54,895 nucleotides of DNA. It comes from Spirochaetaceae bacterium (lineage in GTDB: Bacteria > Spirochaetota > Spirochaetia > SZUA-6 > Bin103). Of this stretch, positions 15,195 to 50,195 are shown piece by piece. The translations under genes and the position numbers were made by a program. The DNA is taken from NCBI GenBank assembly GCA_028821475.1, contig JAPPGB010000086.1, positions 1-54,895 of the forward strand. Reading direction: 5' to 3'. Position 1 is the stretch's first letter, and each line of letters opens with the position of its first letter. The notes beneath the pieces were generated by a model, which was given only the letters and a program-made list of their open reading frames with translations, was not told the origin of the DNA and did no database searches.

Positions 15195-16748
15195 ATGATC
15201 GAGAAACGCCTCGGCGGTCTCTGGCAACAGCTCCAAGCCAAGAAGCTCCACCTGCGCCACTTCCTGTCCGAGGTCCGCCTGTCGGGTATCCGTGGGATTG
15301 GCGACCTGCGAGTGGCCTTCGACTACCCGGTCAGCGTCATCGCCGGCGGCAACGCGAGCGGCAAGTCGACCGTGTTGTTCGCGGCTGCCTGCGCTTACCG
15401 AGTACCGGGAGCCGGCGTGAAGGACTACGTCCCTTCTACTCTGTTTCCCGACTATCGGCCGAAGTCCGGCGCTCGCGAGGATACGAAGCGCGAAGTCATA
15501 ATCGACTTCGAATACTCCACGCCGGACGGACGACGATCCATGCGCTGGCGCCGCGCAAAGGGGTGGAACCGCAGCTTCCTCGGTCGAAAGGGGGCAAGTC
15601 AGCCTGAACGCCCGGTCTATCTGCGCACGCTCAGCAATCTCAGCAACCCATCCGAGGTGCGCGGTGTGCTGAGCATGTCACGCTTGACTGCCGCGCCCGC
15701 GGAGACGCGGCTCACCGCCTCGCAAATAGAGTTTGCGCAGCAGATGCTCCCGTTCAGATACGCCGAGGTTGTCGATCTGTCCAGTGGAAGCAAGCGTCTT
15801 CTGTTCGCAGCCCAGGAGAAGGGCGCCGTCTATTCGGAGCTGCACATGGCCGCAGGCGAACGCTCGATACTGAGGCTCTCACAGGAGATCGCACAGCTCC
15901 GGGGCGCCCTGATCCTGATCGACGAGGTGGAAGCCGGTCTGCATCCATGGGTCCAGCAGTTGCTCATGCTGCAACTCCAGCAGCTTGCGCTGCGCAACGA
16001 CCTGCAGATCATCGTGACCTCGCACAGCCCGGTGGTGCTCGACTCCGTGCCCGCGAACGGCCGCGTGTTCCTGGACCGGGACTACGCCAGCGGTACCGTG
16101 ACGGTGCAACCTGCATATCGCGACCTTGTTCAGGACGCCCTCTACGGGCGCTCGGCCGACGTCCTGAACTTGCTCTGCGAAGACGTTACTGCCGAAGGGA
16201 TCCTGCACGGTGTCCTGGATGTTCTTCTCCCACGCCAGAGCATGAGGAGGGAGACCGTTCGCATCGGGCGGGACACTGGCGCCGGTGAGTTTCCAACTCA
16301 TGCCACGGCATTCCGCAAGTTCGGTCAGATCCACAACTTCGTTTTCGTGCTTGATGGCGATGGACGCGGAAGCGACGCGGAGAGCCGGATTGCGCGGGCG
16401 GCAGAAAGCGACGTCCCGGTGTATTTTCTCCCCGGCACGGAAGCTCCCGAGATTTGGATCTGGGATCGAATCCGTGCGAACCTGGCGGCGGCAGCCGAGG
16501 GTCTGCATATGGATCCGAACGAGCTCGCCATCCGAGTGGACCGGCTCAATGCGGTCTACGACTCCGCTTCCGATCGGCCCGCCACTATCGCCAAGACCAA
16601 GCTCAGAGCCCTTGCCGAGGCTGGCGATTGGGCTACGCCCGACATATGCCGACTGATCGCCCGCCACGAGACCATGAGGAAGGAAAGCGATATTCAGCCG
16701 CTCGTCGAGGGGCTGGAAACTACGCTGCTGCGTTGGCGATCCGATTAG
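15195..16748 (+). CDS. OLD-like ATPase with C-terminal TOPRIM domain
   Basis: The 517-residue protein starts with an ABC-type AAA domain: RLSGIRGIGDLRVAF, Walker A GGNASGKST, Walker B LILIDEVEAGLHPW and the switch histidine in VTSHSPVVLDSV. A TOPRIM-like segment follows, from LLCEDVTAEGILHGVLDVL (acidic residue) to FVFVLDGDGRG (DxD). This order is that of OLD-family nucleases (P2 Old, GajA of Gabija), which act in phage defence. No UvrD-like GajB helicase is nearby, so it is a stand-alone OLD-like protein. It begins 19 bases after smc, with GGAG before its ATG, and ends 157 bases before tRNA-Gly. GC content is slightly lower than in smc. Role in defence is inference. Confidence 0.75.
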   Translation: MIEKRLGGLWQQLQAKKLHLRHFLSEVRLSGIRGIGDLRVAFDYPVSVIAGGNASGKSTVLFAAACAYRVPGAGVKDYVPSTLFPDYRPKSGAREDTKREVIIDFEYSTPDGRRSMRWRRAKGWNRSFLGRKGASQPERPVYLRTLSNLSNPSEVRGVLSMSRLTAAPAETRLTASQIEFAQQMLPFRYAEVVDLSSGSKRLLFAAQEKGAVYSELHMAAGERSILRLSQEIAQLRGALILIDEVEAGLHPWVQQLLMLQLQQLALRNDLQIIVTSHSPVVLDSVPANGRVFLDRDYASGTVTVQPAYRDLVQDALYGRSADVLNLLCEDVTAEGILHGVLDVLLPRQSMRRETVRIGRDTGAGEFPTHATAFRKFGQIHNFVFVLDGDGRGSDAESRIARAAESDVPVYFLPGTEAPEIWIWDRIRANLAAAAEGLHMDPNELAIRVDRLNAVYDSASDRPATIAKTKLRALAEAGDWATPDICRLIARHETMRKESDIQPLVEGLETTLLRWRSD

Positions 16749-16905: not shown

Positions 16906-16977
16906 GCGCCTGTCGTATAAGGGTCATTACCCGAGCCTTCCAAGCTCGTGATGGCGGTTCGAGTCCGCTCGGGCGCT
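16906..16977 (+). tRNA. tRNA-Gly (anticodon UCC)
   Basis: A 72-base cloverleaf folds by eye. The acceptor stem GCGCCTG pairs with CGGGCGC (one G-U), with discriminator U73 at 16977. The D arm is GTA/TAC with GGG in the loop. The anticodon stem CGAGC/GCTCG is perfect with loop CTTCCAA, giving anticodon UCC. The T arm is GGCGG-TTCGAGT-CCGCT. The glycine identity elements known from E. coli (G1-C72, C2-G71, G3-C70, C35, C36, U73) are all present. CCA is not encoded. It lies between two accessory ATPase genes, so it may have served as an integration target. Confidence 0.9.
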
Positions 16978-17096
16978 CTACTCGACTCCCATCCACCGAC
17001 CGGATCGCGGCGGCTTGTGGGGGCAGAAGGGACCGAGATGGCATCACGACAGCGACCAACGAACCACCTGCTACCGGTGCCTGACGAAGTTCGTCC

Positions 17097-18362
17097 GTGA
17101 AGCTGCGCTCCGTCGAGATTGAGAACTTTCGCGCAATCAAGCATCTCAAGCTGTCTCTGGACGAATCTCTTACCGTGTTCCACGGCGATAACGCTGACGG
17201 AAAGACGAGTGTACTGAGCGCAATCGCCGTCGGTCTCGGACGCATTCCCACTCTCCTGCCGGCGGTGACGGGTATCTCCTTTCGCGATTCGGATCGGAGA
17301 CGGTCGGCACACAGTGTCAGCGTTAAGCTCAAGACAACCGACGGAGTAGAATGGGAACAGCGGAAAGGTGGAGTACGTCAGCCGGTTGACGGTCACTCGT
17401 TACGGGAAAAGATCGACGGAATCGTCCGCTCGGACAAGGAGGGTCGTGCGCGAAATCTGCCGATTGTGGCCTTCTACGATACCGATCGTGCCGTGCTTGA
17501 TGTGCCTCGACGAAGGAGTGGATTCGACCGCGGACTCCCACGTTACACCGCTTTGGAGGGAGCGCTCTCCGCGCGCGCTGACTTCCGTGATTTCTTTGAG
17601 TGGTTCAAGGCCAAAGAGGACGAAGAGCTACGGGATCAGAAGAGCAATTCACGCCATGTTTCGCATGAACTCGAAGCCGTTCGTAGCGCAATCACGTCCA
17701 TGATACCGAATGCCTCTCGACCACGTATCGTGTTCCGTCCACTTCGTTTCATGGTATCCCTTGAATCGGAATCAGGGCCACAGGAAGACCTGACCCTCGA
17801 TCAACTCAGCGGCGGCTATCGAATCATTCTGGCACTGGTGGCAGATCTTGCTCGGCGGATGGCGCAGGGTAACCCGCAAAAAGAAGAGCCTCTTAAGTGT
17901 GAGGCGGTCGTGCTCATCGACGAGATCGAGCTTCATCTGCATCCTGAGTGGCAGCAGAGAGTCCTCGACGACTTGCTGCGTACATTTCCAAACACCCAAT
18001 TCCTCGTGTCCACGCACAGCCCGCAGGTGTTGACCACGGTTCTGCCGGAACGAGTCGTGGAGCTCAGCCGGGCGAGTGGCACGATTGTCGCCGGCCATGC
18101 GTCGGCCCCCACCTATGGGGCTGAATCCGGCGACGTGCTTTTGACCGTGATGGGAGTTCGTTCTCGTCCCGCCAACAACAAGTTCGTACAGACACTCGAC
18201 CGGTACCTGCGCCTTGTCGCTGACGATCAAGGAGAGTCAATAGTGGCGCGCGAACTTAGAGCCGAACTTGAAGAGGTCTCGCCCCGAGATCCGGCATTGG
18301 ACGGCGCCGACGTGGAGATACGCCGGCGCAACGTGTTGAAGCAAATGGCCCAGCGGAAGTGA
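17097..18362 (+). CDS. AAA ATPase, PtuA/RloC-like (AAA_21 type)
   Basis: The 421-residue protein is an ABC/SMC-type ATPase: KLRSVEIENFRAIKHLKL, Walker A GDNADGKTS, signature LDQLSGGYRIILALVADLA, Walker B AVVLIDEIELHLHPEWQQ and VSTHSPQVL, with an N-domain insertion (about 90-210) and a C-terminal helical tail. This arrangement resembles PtuA of Septu and the ATPase of RloC-like and retron-associated systems. An HNH partner (PtuB) is not found: the next 50 bases are empty and then a minus-strand remnant follows. The start is a GTG without a strong ribosome binding site. GC content is clearly lower than that of flanking core genes, consistent with transfer. Confidence 0.7.
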   Translation: MKLRSVEIENFRAIKHLKLSLDESLTVFHGDNADGKTSVLSAIAVGLGRIPTLLPAVTGISFRDSDRRRSAHSVSVKLKTTDGVEWEQRKGGVRQPVDGHSLREKIDGIVRSDKEGRARNLPIVAFYDTDRAVLDVPRRRSGFDRGLPRYTALEGALSARADFRDFFEWFKAKEDEELRDQKSNSRHVSHELEAVRSAITSMIPNASRPRIVFRPLRFMVSLESESGPQEDLTLDQLSGGYRIILALVADLARRMAQGNPQKEEPLKCEAVVLIDEIELHLHPEWQQRVLDDLLRTFPNTQFLVSTHSPQVLTTVLPERVVELSRASGTIVAGHASAPTYGAESGDVLLTVMGVRSRPANNKFVQTLDRYLRLVADDQGESIVARELRAELEEVSPRDPALDGADVEIRRRNVLKQMAQRK

Positions 18363-34867: not shown

Positions 34868-35387
34868 ATGCCCGAGGAGGAGATTCGCTGGGCCTATGAG
34901 CCTGTCGGAATACGACAGGCTCATAGGATAGGCCGGGTTGGGCCGGAAGCGGCGCCGCAGGCGGCGATTTCGGGGCGCTACCGGTTCCAGAACTTCTCCC
35001 GGGCATTCGGCCACTTGCAGGACGCCTTGACAGAGGGCGCGGAGGCCCTGAACGAGCTGGAGCAGGAGGGCGTGATCCAGCGCTTCGAGTACACCTTCGA
35101 ATTTGGCCTGGAACACGCTCAAGGACCGCCCGGAGCACGACGGCGTCGTGTTGAACCCGGTAACTCCGCGCTCCGTGATCCGCCGCGCGTTCCAGGCGAA
35201 GCTGATCTCCGAGGGCGAGCAATGGATCGACATGCTCGGCGATCGCGACCGCATGTCCCACACCTACGACAGCGCTACGTTCGAAACGACCATCACGGAG
35301 ATCGAAGAGCGCTATCTCGAGCGGCTGAACGAGCTGCATGTTCGCCTGAGCCACGAGATGGCTGAACAGGAGACGAAGGAGCCGTGA
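34868..35387 (+). pseudogene. HI0074-type HEPN substrate-binding protein, frameshifted
   Basis: The gene encodes the HI0074-like (nucleotidyltransferase substrate-binding) partner of the downstream MNT gene. The first part reads RFQNFSRAFGHLQDAL and GVIQRFEYTFEF in one frame; the second reads AWNTLKDRPEHDGVVLNP, RRAFQAKLISEGEQWIDML and RDRMSHTYD in the next. The join is at a TTT (35102-35104): removing one T restores FELAWNTL, the expected family sequence. It may be a true mutation, a programmed frameshift at a slippery run, or a sequencing error. The N-terminal region contains a 15-bp palindrome. The end overlaps the MNT start (GTGA). Confidence 0.75.
34893..34927. repeat. perfect 15-bp inverted repeat with 5-base loop
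   Basis: Bases 34893-34907 and 34913-34927 are exact complements (arms begin CCTATGAGCC), with loop GAATA. It is 59 bases after the binding-protein stop and has no T-run. It could stop or protect the upstream mRNA, be a mobile-element footprint, or be an operator of the HEPN/MNT pair. Confidence 0.7.
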
Positions 35388-35701
35388 GACAGGTCGACCT
35401 GCCGAGCGGCGCGCTGCGTGAGCTGGTTGCCGTGTTCGGACGCTACCCCGACCTGCAACAGGTGATCCTGTTTGGCTCGCGGGCCACCGGCCGATCCACC
35501 GAACGGTCGGACATCGACCTGGCTACCCGAGGGATTCTGGACCGGCACCGGCTCGGGCGCCTCTCACTCGACCTGGACGAAGTGGCCATCCCCCAGGAGT
35601 GCGGCGTGCAAGCGTACGAACAGATCCACCATGCCCCGCTGAAGGCCCACATCGACCGGTGGGGGATCGCGATCTACGAACGCGAACGAAGTGCGCTTTG
35701 A
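35384..35701 (+). CDS. MNT-type minimal nucleotidyltransferase
   Basis: The 105-residue protein has the pol-beta-type signature GSRATGRSTERSDIDLA (G-S-x10-D-x-D), as in MntA antitoxins that AMPylate their HEPN toxin partners. Here the partner is of the HI0074 class, with which MNT proteins form a heterotetramer. GTG start overlaps the upstream stop. The third acidic residue of the catalytic triad may lie in LDLDEV. Because the partner gene is frameshifted, the protein may be orphaned. Confidence 0.85.
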   Translation: MRQVDLPSGALRELVAVFGRYPDLQQVILFGSRATGRSTERSDIDLATRGILDRHRLGRLSLDLDEVAIPQECGVQAYEQIHHAPLKAHIDRWGIAIYERERSAL

Positions 35702-35719
35702 TGTCGTTGCGCTCCCCCG

Positions 35720-36244
35720 CTACGGTGCGGACACCACTGGTAGGCTGACCACCGTCCAGCACATGTTCCCCGCTATACAGTCTTTGTCGACTACTTTGGG
35801 ATGGGCATCGATCGCCTTTAGCAGACGCTTGAGCTTCTGCACCACGTCTGCACGAGCGATGACTCGTGGTCGTATCCTGGACCGGAATCCGGGCTGCTCA
35901 AGGTGCAGTACTATGAGCCATTTGTTCTTTCGCAATACTCTTTTCGCGACCTCCTTTTCGTCCGGATCATTTGCGTTGCAGCGAGCGGCCGCGATCCCTG
36001 CTATAGTATCTCGCACCTTGATTGCCACCTCGTCGCACAGACAACTCGGTTTGACACGTGGGTGCACTCGGTAGTCCTTTACTTCGATGAGCCACGTCCC
36101 CACGCCGTCCAAGCAGATAAAGTCGACCGCCTTCGAACCACCGGCGACGTTCTGGAACTGGTTCCTGTAGAACGCCCACTCATCATAGTGCGCCGCATCT
36201 GAATCAAAGCGGAACTCCAGGTTGCCCTCGGTGAGGCAGGTCAT
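35720..36244 (-). CDS. PD-(D/E)XK-type nuclease-like protein
   Basis: The 174-residue protein shows a nuclease-like core: helix around DEWAFYRNQF, then KAVDFICLDG with Asp41, and WLIEVKDYR with Glu54-Val-Lys56. This D-x12-E-x-K spacing is the PD-(D/E)XK pattern. The rest has no known motif. It starts 8 bases after the stop of the ATPase gene, so both are one operon. Such ATPase-nuclease pairs are typical of defence systems. GC content is much lower than in neighbouring core genes. I cannot name the family; it is not DUF4435, so it is not a standard PARIS AriB. Confidence 0.65.
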   Translation of the reverse strand: MTCLTEGNLEFRFDSDAAHYDEWAFYRNQFQNVAGGSKAVDFICLDGVGTWLIEVKDYRVHPRVKPSCLCDEVAIKVRDTIAGIAAARCNANDPDEKEVAKRVLRKNKWLIVLHLEQPGFRSRIRPRVIARADVVQKLKRLLKAIDAHPKVVDKDCIAGNMCWTVVSLPVVSAP

Positions 36245-36252
36245 GATATCGG

Positions 36253-37359
36253 TTACTGATGGGCTTCGAGGAATCGGTCGGATTGCAGCAACTCTTCATC
36301 CAGCGCCACCAGCGGACCGACATCGTCCAAGCTGTCACCTTGTTGAACGTCAACCCCGTCAGCGTTCGGCGACAGCGCGAAGTAGCGTTGTCCGATGTCG
36401 GCGAACCGCTCCTCCTTCAAGAGCGTCTCAAGCTCCCGCAGCAAGAACAGACTGTGAGTTGCAACGAATATCTGGACGCCGTGGGAGCAGATCTGCAGAA
36501 TTGATTCCGCCACTCCACGGACCAACTTCGAGTTCAGATTGCTCTCTGGCTCGTCCCAGAACAATACGCCTTGGTCAAGCAGAGAACCGGTAGCGATCAG
36601 CCTCGCCAACATGGCAAGTTTCCTTATACCCTCGGCCACCAGGTGGATCTCTAGATTCCCTACTCCTGGTTGCCGCAGATAGAACCGTCCGTTTTCATCC
36701 AGTGACAAACGTCCTCCCATCTGCTTTTCCAACGGCTCCAGTAGCTCGACGACTCGCTGTTCTCGCACTCCCTTCAACGCAGCGGCACCGAGCAGCTGAC
36801 ACGTGTCTCGCCAAGTCTCATCGAACTGCAAGTAATGACTGTCGTATATCGATACGAATCCCGGAAAAACTGTTAGCAACTCGTGTGCCGGAAGAAACAC
36901 GGGCGCCTTATCCACCCACTGTGTGGGACAGGTGTCAATGACAACTTCCTTTGTGCTCTGGCTCGAAAAACTGAACCGGAACGTGTGCTCAGAGCAGTGG
37001 AATCGCACTTCTACTTCACAACGAGCCCTTCCCCGCTGGCGTCGGGCGAGCCGCCCGAGAGATTCAGGCCGGAACACTTGATTCAGCTTCTGTGCCAAAT
37101 CACGCTGCAACGTTCCCTTGGTGGGTCTCTCACCGCTGTTCCGCCTTGCTCCACTAGCACTAGTCGCAATTACCGAGTAAGGAAGCTTCAGCAGATGGCT
37201 CTTACCAGTGCCATTCTCGCCAACAAAGACATTCAACCCGTCGGCGAACTTCAATTCACTTGGTCCGAACGCGGTGAAGTTGTCGATTATCATTGACCCC
37301 AGCACGGAAGCACGAATATAGTCTGTCGCTCCGCGCAGTGTGTCAAGCGCTTCGTACAT
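36253..37359 (-). CDS. AAA_15/AAA_21-type ATPase paired with nuclease
   Basis: The 368-residue protein is an ABC-type ATPase: MIIDNFTAFGPSELKF, Walker A GENGTGKS (47-54), a recognition-like segment NLEIHLVAEGIRKLAMLARL (signature region), Walker B GVLFWDEPESNLN, and VATHSLFLLRELE. It resembles AriA-type or OLD-type ATPases without a nuclease domain. The ATG at 37359 has no clear ribosome binding site; ATG at 37293 (MIIDNF) is a possible alternative. The C-terminal region ends SDRFLEAHQ. It is the upstream gene of the operon with the nuclease-like protein. Low GC suggests transfer. Confidence 0.75.
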   Translation of the reverse strand: MYEALDTLRGATDYIRASVLGSMIIDNFTAFGPSELKFADGLNVFVGENGTGKSHLLKLPYSVIATSASGARRNSGERPTKGTLQRDLAQKLNQVFRPESLGRLARRQRGRARCEVEVRFHCSEHTFRFSFSSQSTKEVVIDTCPTQWVDKAPVFLPAHELLTVFPGFVSIYDSHYLQFDETWRDTCQLLGAAALKGVREQRVVELLEPLEKQMGGRLSLDENGRFYLRQPGVGNLEIHLVAEGIRKLAMLARLIATGSLLDQGVLFWDEPESNLNSKLVRGVAESILQICSHGVQIFVATHSLFLLRELETLLKEERFADIGQRYFALSPNADGVDVQQGDSLDDVGPLVALDEELLQSDRFLEAHQ

Positions 37360-37502
37360 GCGGTCCGTGGTGTCCGCGGGCGATCGGCACCGCTTCAAGG
37401 TCGACGCTTCCGTTTCGCGACACGCGACGCCGCCAAGTCTCAGACTGTGTGCGTTCGCGGGCGCGAGTTACAATCCTTCGCCCACAGGGTAGAATCCTCT
37501 GC

Positions 37503-47430: not shown

Positions 47431-48114
47431 ATGACTTGGATAGAAGCCATCTGCAGAGTACTGGAGGAATCTCCCGAGCCCATGAACCGCGCGGAGATTG
47501 CCGAGAGCGTAGTCAACCGGAACCTCGTCGACCACAAGGGGTCTGCACCTGCCGACGTCGTTTCTTCCACACTCAGTACGCACATCAATACGGAGCAAAA
47601 TCCCCTTGTCATAAGAGTCGCAAGAGGGCTCTACACGCTGGCCAACAAGCCTGTATCCGATGACGGAACGAGAGACGTAATCGTAACTTGTTTCGGAATG
47701 TTCTGGGAACGACAACCGATTGTCTGGCGTACAGTTCCCGAGATCTTGGGCATGCAGTATGTCGGATCAGATCCCGTCGATTTCTGTAACCAACTTGGCG
47801 TTTACTTGCTGTATGACAGCCGCGAAGTGATTTACGTGGGACGTACGACCGACCGATCTTTAGGGAGGCGACTGTCTGAGCACACCAAGGACCGACTGCG
47901 GACAAGATGGAATCGTTTTTCGTGGTTCGGCCTGCTTCCAGTACACGATTCTGGTACGCTGGGGGATCTGCCCGATTCGTTTTCTTCCTCAATGATGATC
48001 CCGACTCTTGAGGCGGTTCTCATCGAGGCTCTAGAACCTCGCCAGAACCGTAAGCGGGGAGACGACATGGCAGCCGTCGAATACATACAGAGGGTAGGTT
48101 TGCCAGAGCTCTAG
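47431..48114 (+). CDS. HARE-HTH plus GIY-YIG nuclease protein
   Basis: The 227-residue protein joins an N-terminal HARE-HTH winged helix (WIEAICRVLEESPEPMNRAE, then VVSSTLSTHIN and LVIRVARGLYTLA), a domain associated with restriction and modified-DNA reading, to a C-terminal GIY-YIG nuclease (GVYLLYDSREVIYVGRTTD, with Arg in GRRLSEH and a Glu near EAVLIEAL). The fusion suggests a nuclease guided by recognition of DNA. The ribosome binding site is weak. GC is low. No methylase gene is nearby, so a type IV-like restriction role is possible but only inferred. Confidence 0.75.
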   Translation: MTWIEAICRVLEESPEPMNRAEIAESVVNRNLVDHKGSAPADVVSSTLSTHINTEQNPLVIRVARGLYTLANKPVSDDGTRDVIVTCFGMFWERQPIVWRTVPEILGMQYVGSDPVDFCNQLGVYLLYDSREVIYVGRTTDRSLGRRLSEHTKDRLRTRWNRFSWFGLLPVHDSGTLGDLPDSFSSSMMIPTLEAVLIEALEPRQNRKRGDDMAAVEYIQRVGLPEL

Positions 48115-48189
48115 GTCAACCGAATCTCTCGGATCCGGGGTCGTGGCTGTCCATGTGTCGACCGGGTTGGCCGAGTAATCTACTTTGTC

Positions 48190-48659
48190 ATGGATCTGAC
48201 GCGGTCGCTGAAGCCGGTGTTGCCGGCGGATGTGGAGCGGCGGTTGCACGAGCCGCCGCCGCGCTCGGCGAGCGAGTTTCTGGCCGAGCCGTATGCGCTC
48301 GCTCGGAGCAGGTCGAGCACTACCGGGAGCTTGGGTTCGTGAAGGCCGCGGATGACTCGGAGTTCGTCGACATCTTCAGCGTCACGAAGGATCTCCCGCT
48401 GCCCGGCGAGTTGGCGTGGCACTGGGTGCCGCTGGCCGCTGGCGACTGCACGTTCCACTCCGGCTGCGTCTACCACCGCGCCGACGCCAACCGCACCGCC
48501 GCCATGCGTGAAGCGATGACCGTGGCCTACATGTCTGCCGACGCCGTCTACGACTGGCCGGACTGGAACTCGCGGGTCGAGAACATGCACGGCTTCGGCA
48601 CCGCCGGACTGTGCCGCGGCGCCCCGCTCAACAAGCCGAGTAACCCACAGCTGGCGTAG
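48190..48659 (+). pseudogene. decayed phytanoyl-CoA dioxygenase gene
   Basis: A start MDLTRSLKPVLPADVERRL runs in one frame to about 48340; the text EQVEHYRELGFVKA, the family's N-terminal motif, then appears in another frame (about 48315), joined directly to DSEFVDIFSVTKDLPLP, GELAWHWVPLAAGDCTFHSG and HRADANRTAAMREAMTV, the C-terminal PhyH part. About 150 residues, including the H-x-D iron ligands, are missing, and the frame shifts once. It is a pseudogene from internal deletion. Confidence 0.75.
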
Positions 48660-48693
48660 ACCGGCACTGAACCGGCCATCGCTACCCGACGGC

Positions 48694-48793
48694 AGTTGCG
48701 CGTATAGCCCTACGCGCAAGAATAGCTGCGCATAGGGTTGATAGTTGCGCGTATAGCGGCCATAGTTGCGCGTATAGTCCTACGCGCAACTAT
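48694..48793. promoter_or_regulatory. repeat operator before the Fic-like gene
   Basis: The unit AGTTGCGCGTATAG occurs at 48694, 48743 and 48764 (the last two 21 bases apart). Inverted copies (TACGCGCAA) follow the first at 48711-48719 and the third at 48781-48791, making palindromes with 6-base centres. A degenerate copy lies at about 48725-48735. The last palindrome touches the ATG at 48792 and includes TATAGT, a likely -10. The next gene has an N-terminal HTH, so autoregulation is probable. Confidence 0.75.
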
Positions 48794-50195
48794 GGCAAGG
48801 CACTTGGAGGAAGCGAGTCTTCGGGCAATCGAAGAGGTCTTGCGGCAGCACCCGGACGGCCGGACCGCATCGCAGATTGCGGGCGCCCTGACCTCGGCAC
48901 CGCCGCGGCGGACCCTGCAATACCGCCTGAAGTCGCTTGTCGACAGCAAGCGCCTGATCATGGACGGCAAGGGCCGCTCAGCGCGTTACCACGTGCCGAG
49001 GATGGTCGACATCGCGGTCCATGCGGTTTCGGGGTCTCCGACGGTCAACATAAAGGTTGAAGCTGTAACGGTGCTGTCGGAGGCCGGGGTAGAGGTTCGG
49101 GAGTATGTCCGCCAGCCGCCGGCGGCGCGGCGCCCGGTCGGTTACGACCGAGCGTTCCTCGATTCGTACCGGCCCAACGAGACCTTCTATTTCTCACCCG
49201 CGGAACGGGCGCACCTCCATGAAGTGGGGCGGCCGGTGACCGCCGGCCAACCCGCCGGCACCTACGCGAGACAAATCCTGAACAGGCTGTTGATCGATCT
49301 GTCCTGGAACTCGAGCCGTCTTGAGGGCAACACCTATTCGCTGCTTGATACCAAGCGCCTGCTCGAGATCGGCGAGGAAGCGGAGGGGAAGCAGCGCCTC
49401 GAAGCGCAGATGATCCTGAACCACAAGGACGCAATAGAGTTTCTGGTGGACGAGGCTGGGAGGATCGGCTTCGATCGCCATACCATCCTCAGTCTTCACG
49501 CGCTGCTGGCGGACAACCTGCTTGCCGATTCCCGCGCCGCGGGGCGGCTCCGCCACATCGCCGTCGGTATCGACGGCTCGGTATTTTACCCGCTGGAGAC
49601 GCCGGCCCTGATCGAAGAGTGCTTCGGTCAGGTTCTTGCCACCGCCGCCGCGATCAGAGAGCCGTTCGAGCAGGCCCTGTTCGTGATGGTGCAGCTTCCC
49701 TACCTGCAGCCGTTCGATGATGTGAACAAGCGGGTATCGCGACTCGCTGCCAACATTCCGTTGATCAAGGCCAACCTGGTCCCGCTGTCCTTCGAGGACG
49801 TACCGCGCGACCTGTATACCGAAGCGATCCTCGGCGTGTACGAGTTGAAGCGCTTCGAACTGCTGCGTGACGTGTTCATCTGGGCATACGGGCGATCGGC
49901 GGCCCGCTACGCTGCCGTAAGGCAGTCCCTGGGAGAACCCGATCCGTTCCGGTTGCAGCACCGCTCGGCGCTGCGCGAGGTGATCGGTACGGTCATTCGC
50001 GAGCGCATGAACACGAAGCAGGCCAGTGCCTGGGTCGCCGTGTGGACTCACGATCACATTGAACAACAGCAGCGCGAGCGGTTCCGGGAGGTCGCCGAGA
50101 GGGAGCTGCTGAGTCTGCACGAGGGTAATTTCGCGCGCTACCGGGTCAGGCCGTCCGAGTTCGAGGCGTGGCAGGAGGTCTGGACCGGCTCGTAG
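48792..50195 (+). CDS. winged-helix plus Fic-like protein with altered Fic motif
   Basis: The 467-residue protein has an N-terminal winged helix (about 5-70: TASQIAGALTSAPPRRTLQY), then a Fic domain. The inhibitory motif SSRLEGN (S-x-x-x-E-G, Glu178) places it in class II. The core motif reads LQPFDDVNKRVSR (306-317) instead of H-P-F-x-D/E-G-N-G-R: the catalytic His is Gln, so AMPylation is unlikely. The C-terminal part (about 390-467) is helical. No ribosome binding site precedes the ATG, which lies in a palindrome. It may be a transcription regulator that uses a Fic fold for ligand binding. A small antitoxin gene is not seen. Confidence 0.78.
   Translation: MARHLEEASLRAIEEVLRQHPDGRTASQIAGALTSAPPRRTLQYRLKSLVDSKRLIMDGKGRSARYHVPRMVDIAVHAVSGSPTVNIKVEAVTVLSEAGVEVREYVRQPPAARRPVGYDRAFLDSYRPNETFYFSPAERAHLHEVGRPVTAGQPAGTYARQILNRLLIDLSWNSSRLEGNTYSLLDTKRLLEIGEEAEGKQRLEAQMILNHKDAIEFLVDEAGRIGFDRHTILSLHALLADNLLADSRAAGRLRHIAVGIDGSVFYPLETPALIEECFGQVLATAAAIREPFEQALFVMVQLPYLQPFDDVNKRVSRLAANIPLIKANLVPLSFEDVPRDLYTEAILGVYELKRFELLRDVFIWAYGRSAARYAAVRQSLGEPDPFRLQHRSALREVIGTVIRERMNTKQASAWVAVWTHDHIEQQQRERFREVAERELLSLHEGNFARYRVRPSEFEAWQEVWTGS

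What the first reader, a model, noticed from the sequence alone, without database searches (positions are those of the whole stretch)
35720..37359. ATPase plus PD-(D/E)XK nuclease two-gene module
Two low-GC genes 8 bases apart encode an ABC-type ATPase with complete Walker motifs and a 174-residue protein with a clear D-x12-E-x-K nuclease core. The design (NTPase sensor plus nuclease) matches known defence logic such as PARIS, Gabija and Septu, but the effector is not the DUF4435, TOPRIM or HNH type of those. It may be an undescribed or poorly described anti-phage system.
Basis: partly seen in the sequence, partly recalled or inferred. Interest (0 to 1): 0.65.

Follow-up and report, generated by a model that had tools for sequence, protein, structure and literature searches.

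The report
ATPase–nuclease defence pair, already catalogued
The two genes are a real, widely shared pair (an SMC/Rad50-like ATPase plus a small DNA-cutting-type nuclease) that defence databases already list as the candidate anti-phage system HEC-02, so it is a new member of a known but poorly characterised kind.

Summary
In detail: two minus-strand ORFs 8 bases apart encode an ABC-type ATPase and a 174-aa protein with D41-x12-E54-x-K56. It is not undescribed. Both proteins match PADLOC-DB's candidate system HEC-02 over full length (ATPase 1.2e-151, nuclease 8.7e-69). I found the pair in about a dozen phyla; in all 82 loci scored, ATPase and nuclease sit together (81 as the ordered pair, one as a deletion fusion), typically with a 4-base overlap. 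D41, E54 and K56 are invariant in 76 aligned members. A confident model (pLDDT 94) has the PD-(D/E)XK arrangement, and its structural neighbours are nearly all such nucleases. The ATPase models as an SMC/Rad50/PtuA head (Z 18-21). Nineteen of 80 relatives lie inside or beside Hma; two subtype copies abut brxC of BREX. Here the pair stands alone, in a 2.6-kb low-GC insert absent from a same-genus genome. Most likely the ATPase senses infection-associated DNA and gates the nuclease, a reduced analogue of Lamassu or Septu. Sensing, target and antiviral activity are untested here, and no held paper tests HEC-02.

The parts
36253..37305 (-). HEC-02 ATPase gene, preferred start GTG 37305 (350 aa); SMC/Rad50/PtuA-type ABC ATPase
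   Evidence: PADLOC PDLC04146 2.6e-152 over residues 1-348; homologues start here; model pLDDT 90.4; VIA Z 18-21 to SMC, Rad50 and PtuA heads
37306..37359 (-). Upstream in-frame extension from ATG 37359 (18 codons), probably not translated
   Evidence: absent from most homologues; TTGACA-N20-TATATT lies inside it on the minus strand
35720..36244 (-). HEC-02 nuclease gene (174 aa), PD-(D/E)XK core D41/E54/K56
   Evidence: PADLOC PDLC04145 8.7e-69; invariant triad; model pLDDT 94.1; structural neighbours PD-(D/E)XK
36245..36252 (.). 8-base gap between the two genes
   Evidence: median in relatives is a 4-base overlap
34892..37500 (.). Insert relative to a same-genus genome (2,609 bases here, 63 bases there); carries the pair and most of a nucleotidyltransferase/substrate-binding gene pair
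   Evidence: blastn of L102 against the window: homology ends at 34891 and resumes at 37501

Best explanation
The pair is a standalone copy of the candidate anti-phage system HEC-02. Shown: identity with the family, obligate pairing, complete ATPase motifs, invariant nuclease triad, predicted folds, sporadic distribution, and occurrence inside other defence operons. Inferred: the ATPase dimerises on ATP like Rad50 and PtuA heads and holds the small nuclease inactive; DNA ends or other structures made during phage replication, or a phage protein, switch the complex; the nuclease then cuts DNA, either the invader's or both genomes, stopping phage spread. It works like a reduced Lamassu or Septu: SMC-type sensor plus nuclease, without long coiled coils or a third subunit.
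For: PADLOC full-length matches. ATPase found with the nuclease in all 82 loci scored from several phyla (one of them, L088, is an in-frame fusion left by a deletion), and all 7 ATPase copies in the class survey followed by a PD-(D/E)XK gene. Pairwise distances of the two proteins correlate, r 0.66, above all 1000 permutations (max 0.41). Triad invariant. Nuclease model and neighbours, including Upx, Can2/Card1, HamA, McrC, LmuA and SduA. ATPase model near PtuA and Rad50. 19 of 80 loci in or beside Hma; two next to brxC. Rare in the class: nuclease 4 and ATPase 7 of 395 genomes. Same-genus genome has an empty site.
Against: No experimental result for HEC-02 was found. Nuclease Z scores are middling (best 6.9) and Foldseek found no match below E 0.001. 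No complex was modelled. Most relatives in this sample are not next to recognised defence genes, so guilt by association is partial. Sensing and target are pure inference.
Confidence: 0.6

Rival explanations
1. Modification-dependent or structure-specific restriction: the complex recognises invading DNA itself and cuts it, leaving the host alive (McrBC-like use, with an ABC instead of an AAA+ motor).
For: Repeated placement inside Hma, which carries a DNA methylase, and next to brxC of BREX suggests a complement to methylation-based systems, as TgvAB is inside a type I system (PMC11411939). McrC is among the structural neighbours.
Against: No DNA-recognition domain beyond the two folds; most copies are standalone with no Hma methylase beside them.
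Confidence: 0.2
2. ATPase restrains the nuclease as PARIS AriA restrains AriB, released by a phage anti-restriction protein, with RNA (for example tRNA) rather than DNA as target.
For: AriA is the nearest characterised ATPase by profile after HEC-02 itself (16 of 61 members match at 1e-20); embedding in restriction systems fits a guard role.
Against: The effector is PD-(D/E)XK, not DUF4435/TOPRIM. Known relatives by fold mostly cut DNA.
Confidence: 0.12
3. A DNA-repair or housekeeping ATPase-nuclease of the Rad50-Mre11 kind, not defence.
For: Head fold is Rad50/SMC-like; many copies have metabolic neighbours.
Against: Present in about 1-2% of genomes of the class, absent from the orthologous site in a same-genus genome, found on plasmids and inside defence operons.
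Confidence: 0.06

Closest known systems
HEC-02 (Hma-embedded candidate 2), PADLOC-DB 2.0.0; Payne et al. 2024 preprint 10.1101/2024.01.29.577857
   Same: Both proteins, full length, same order, same adjacency
   Different: This copy stands alone; eponymous copies lie between hmaB and hmaC
Lamassu (LmuA/LmuB/LmuC)
   Same: SMC/Rad50-type ATPase as presumed sensor with a nuclease effector that can be PD-(D/E)XK (PMC10586767)
   Different: ATPase 350 aa instead of about 650, no coiled-coil insert, no LmuC, Walker B glutamate kept, no LmuA profile match
Septu / retron Ec78 (PtuA/PtuB)
   Same: Closest solved ATPases by sequence and among the closest by structure
   Different: Effector is PD-(D/E)XK, not HNH
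PARIS (AriA/AriB)
   Same: Two-gene ATPase plus nuclease layout; AriA profile is the next best after HEC-02
   Different: Effector is not DUF4435/TOPRIM

Membership tests
HEC-02 | Full-length match to the HEC-02 ATPase profile | tested here: met
   PDLC04146 2.6e-152, residues 1-348 of 350
HEC-02 | Full-length match to the HEC-02 nuclease profile | tested here: met
   PDLC04145 8.7e-69, profile 4-168 of 170
HEC-02 | The two genes adjacent on one strand | tested here: met
   8 bases apart; adjacent in relatives
HEC-02 | Family members occur inside Hma (context of discovery, not part of the profiles; this copy is standalone) | tested here: met
   19 of 80 genome loci have HmaB and/or HmaC flanks
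HEC-02 | Anti-phage activity | not testable with these tools
   family is a candidate; no test found in held papers
PD-(D/E)XK nuclease superfamily | Conserved D and E-x-K on adjacent strands of an alpha-beta core | tested here: met
   D41 just before strand 42-45, E54 and K56 in strand 50-57, helix 24-33 before; invariant
PD-(D/E)XK nuclease superfamily | Structural similarity to solved members | tested here: met
   top VIA rows are nearly all PD-(D/E)XK nucleases, but Z at most 6.9
Lamassu | LmuB of about 650 aa with coiled coils | tested here: not met
   350 aa compact head; size from PMC10586767
Lamassu | LmuA profile match in the effector | tested here: not met
   only HEC-02 profiles match up to E 1
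Septu | HNH effector PtuB | tested here: not met
   no HNH match; PD-(D/E)XK model
PARIS | AriB with DUF4435/TOPRIM | tested here: not met
   no such match for the effector in Pfam or PADLOC
Gabija | OLD ATPase fused to TOPRIM plus helicase GajB | tested here: not met
   ATPase domain fills the protein, no TOPRIM match; neighbour is a 174-aa nuclease, not a helicase

The most novel reading that the evidence does not exclude
HEC-02 is a self-contained, minimal SMC-type sensor-nuclease module that has repeatedly moved into other defence operons (Hma, BREX) and out again, guarding them or covering what they miss. It would be among the smallest Lamassu-like machines, with one 350-aa sensor and one 170-aa nuclease.
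Probability: 0.3. Interest if true: 0.55.

Novelty: new member of a known kind. Interest (0 to 1): 0.33.

Why it matters
The family is catalogued but, as far as the held papers show, untested. This work adds the effector's fold and catalytic residues, shows the pair is self-contained (most relatives are outside Hma), finds it next to brxC as well, and names mutants that would settle the mechanism. It also shows a gain or loss at one site between same-genus genomes.

Tried and rejected
Foldseek on the nuclease gave no match below E 0.001 in PDB or viral libraries; the VIA second look was informative. No relatives in phage records or IMG/VR at the sensitivity used. No PDB sequence match for the nuclease profile. 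Looked for direct repeats at the insert ends: none of 7 bases or more. Considered a housekeeping repair role and rejected it on distribution. Considered that the motif was chance: rejected by invariance. Cause of the PADLOC label swap (some ATPase profiles named 02A, others 02B) was not resolved.

Full report
What is there. Two minus-strand ORFs, 36253-37359 and 35720-36244, lie 8 bases apart. The first matches AAA_21 and AAA_15 in Pfam; the second has only sub-threshold matches, to DUF6661 and the nuclease-related domain NERD. Scanning 78 relatives gives weak matches to NERD, pPIWI_RE_REase, Hjc and Mrr_cat, known to me as PD-(D/E)XK families. The pair is 55.2% G+C in a 66.9% window. Homologous ATPases begin at the residue encoded by GTG 37305, so the first 18 codons are probably not coding; a TTGACA-N20-TATATT stretch lies inside them.

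Identity. PADLOC-DB gives HEC-02 for both proteins at full length, 1.2e-151 and 8.7e-69. All 61 aligned ATPases and 75 of 76 nucleases match the same HEC-02 profiles; the remaining divergent nuclease probably accounts for the single matches to other HEC-02 nuclease profiles, though the tally does not name it. HEC means Hma-embedded candidate, from a 2024 preprint by Payne and colleagues that is not in the held library. One later paper says several HECs, naming HEC-06, have shown activity, and another describes HEC-05 and HEC-06. No held paper discusses HEC-02.

Conservation of the pair. One genome scan returned the best 80 of 200 confirmed relatives. With the two plasmid copies and one same-class copy, 82 loci could be scored. 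In 78 the ATPase ends within 120 bases before to 500 bases after the nuclease start; the script missed three more only because the nuclease ORF had been extended too far upstream, and in the last (L088) an internal deletion fuses the two. The commonest spacing is a 4-base overlap. Titles cover Pseudomonadota, Desulfobacterota, Cyanobacteria, Chlorobi, Chloroflexi, Acidobacteria, Planctomycetes, Binatia, Myxococcales, Spirochaetia and others. From the other side, all 7 ATPase copies in 395 same-class genomes are followed by a PD-(D/E)XK gene. The two proteins' distance matrices correlate at r 0.66; shared species history contributes to this.

Catalytic residues and folds. D41, E54 and K56 are invariant in 76 nucleases; E54 and K56 were in the scan pattern, D41 was not. 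The nuclease model has mean pLDDT 94.1, with D41 at the start of one strand and E54 and K56 on the next. The VIA list is dominated by PD-(D/E)XK nucleases: AF1548, Can2, FokI, N.BspD6I, HamA, McrC, PaqCI, Avs4, LmuA, Hjc and SduA, Z 3.7 to 6.9. Single Z values this low would mean little; the consistency is what counts. The ATPase model (pLDDT 90.4) matches SMC, Rad50 and PtuA heads at Z 18-21, with Walker A, Walker B glutamate and H-loop invariant.

Context. Nineteen of the 80 genome loci carry HmaB and/or HmaC beside the pair, typically HmaB upstream and HmaC downstream. On a tree the embedded copies are scattered: 11 label changes against 13.5 for shuffled labels, so the pair has probably entered or left Hma many times. 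Short contigs make some 'solo' labels uncertain. Two same-class genomes carry another HEC-02 subtype directly after brxC, start codon overlapping by 4 bases. In the window the pair is alone. The own genome has only a weak HmaB-like methylase on another contig.

Mobility. A same-genus genome has the two flanking genes (94% and 92% identical proteins) with 63 bases where the window has 2,609. The insert holds the pair and most of a nucleotidyltransferase/substrate-binding pair. I cannot tell gain from loss, and the higher G+C of the other genes (64.6%) leaves room for two events. That same genome has its own divergent HEC-02 copy on another contig.

Mechanism. Shown: pairing, motifs, predicted folds, distribution. 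Inferred: ATP-dependent sensing, restraint and release of the nuclease, DNA as target. I give this reading 0.6, restriction of invading DNA 0.2, a PARIS-like RNA-targeting guard 0.12, repair 0.06.

Verdict. New member of a known, poorly tested kind; interest 0.33.

Noticed in passing
window 17097-18362 (+): Full-length PtuA-like (Septu) ATPase, PADLOC 8.7e-114, just after a tRNA-Gly (16906-16978) in a low-GC patch; no HNH PtuB ORF recognised next to it.
   Followed up: partly
window 15195-16748 (+): ATPase matching another candidate, HEC-04 (7.2e-41), so at least three ATPase-type defence candidates lie within about 22 kb.
   Followed up: no
window 34868-35701 (+): MntA-like nucleotidyltransferase (35384-35701) with an HI0074-type substrate-binding gene that appears split by a frameshift near 35.1 kb (ORFs 34868-35365 and 35103-35387).
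   Followed up: partly
window 47431-50195 (+): Low-GC stretch (about 54.5% G+C in 47-48 kb): a 227-aa ORF that looks GIY-YIG-like by eye, and a Fic-type protein matching PDC-S04 and SoFic.
   Followed up: no
L108 and L110: HEC-02 subtype genes directly downstream of brxC, start overlapping by 4 bases: embedding in BREX, not only Hma (the brxC profile match was run on L110).
   Followed up: partly
L088:1371-2138: In-frame deletion fuses the ATPase N-terminus to the nuclease (255 aa); decayed copy or assembly error.
   Followed up: no
PADLOC-DB profiles PDLC04145/04146 against PDLC04213-04229: HEC-02A and HEC-02B labels are swapped between profile sets: some 02A models are ATPases, others nucleases.
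   Followed up: no
L103/L104 (G000:C88): 1067-aa methylase frame weakly like HmaB on another contig of the same genome.
   Followed up: no
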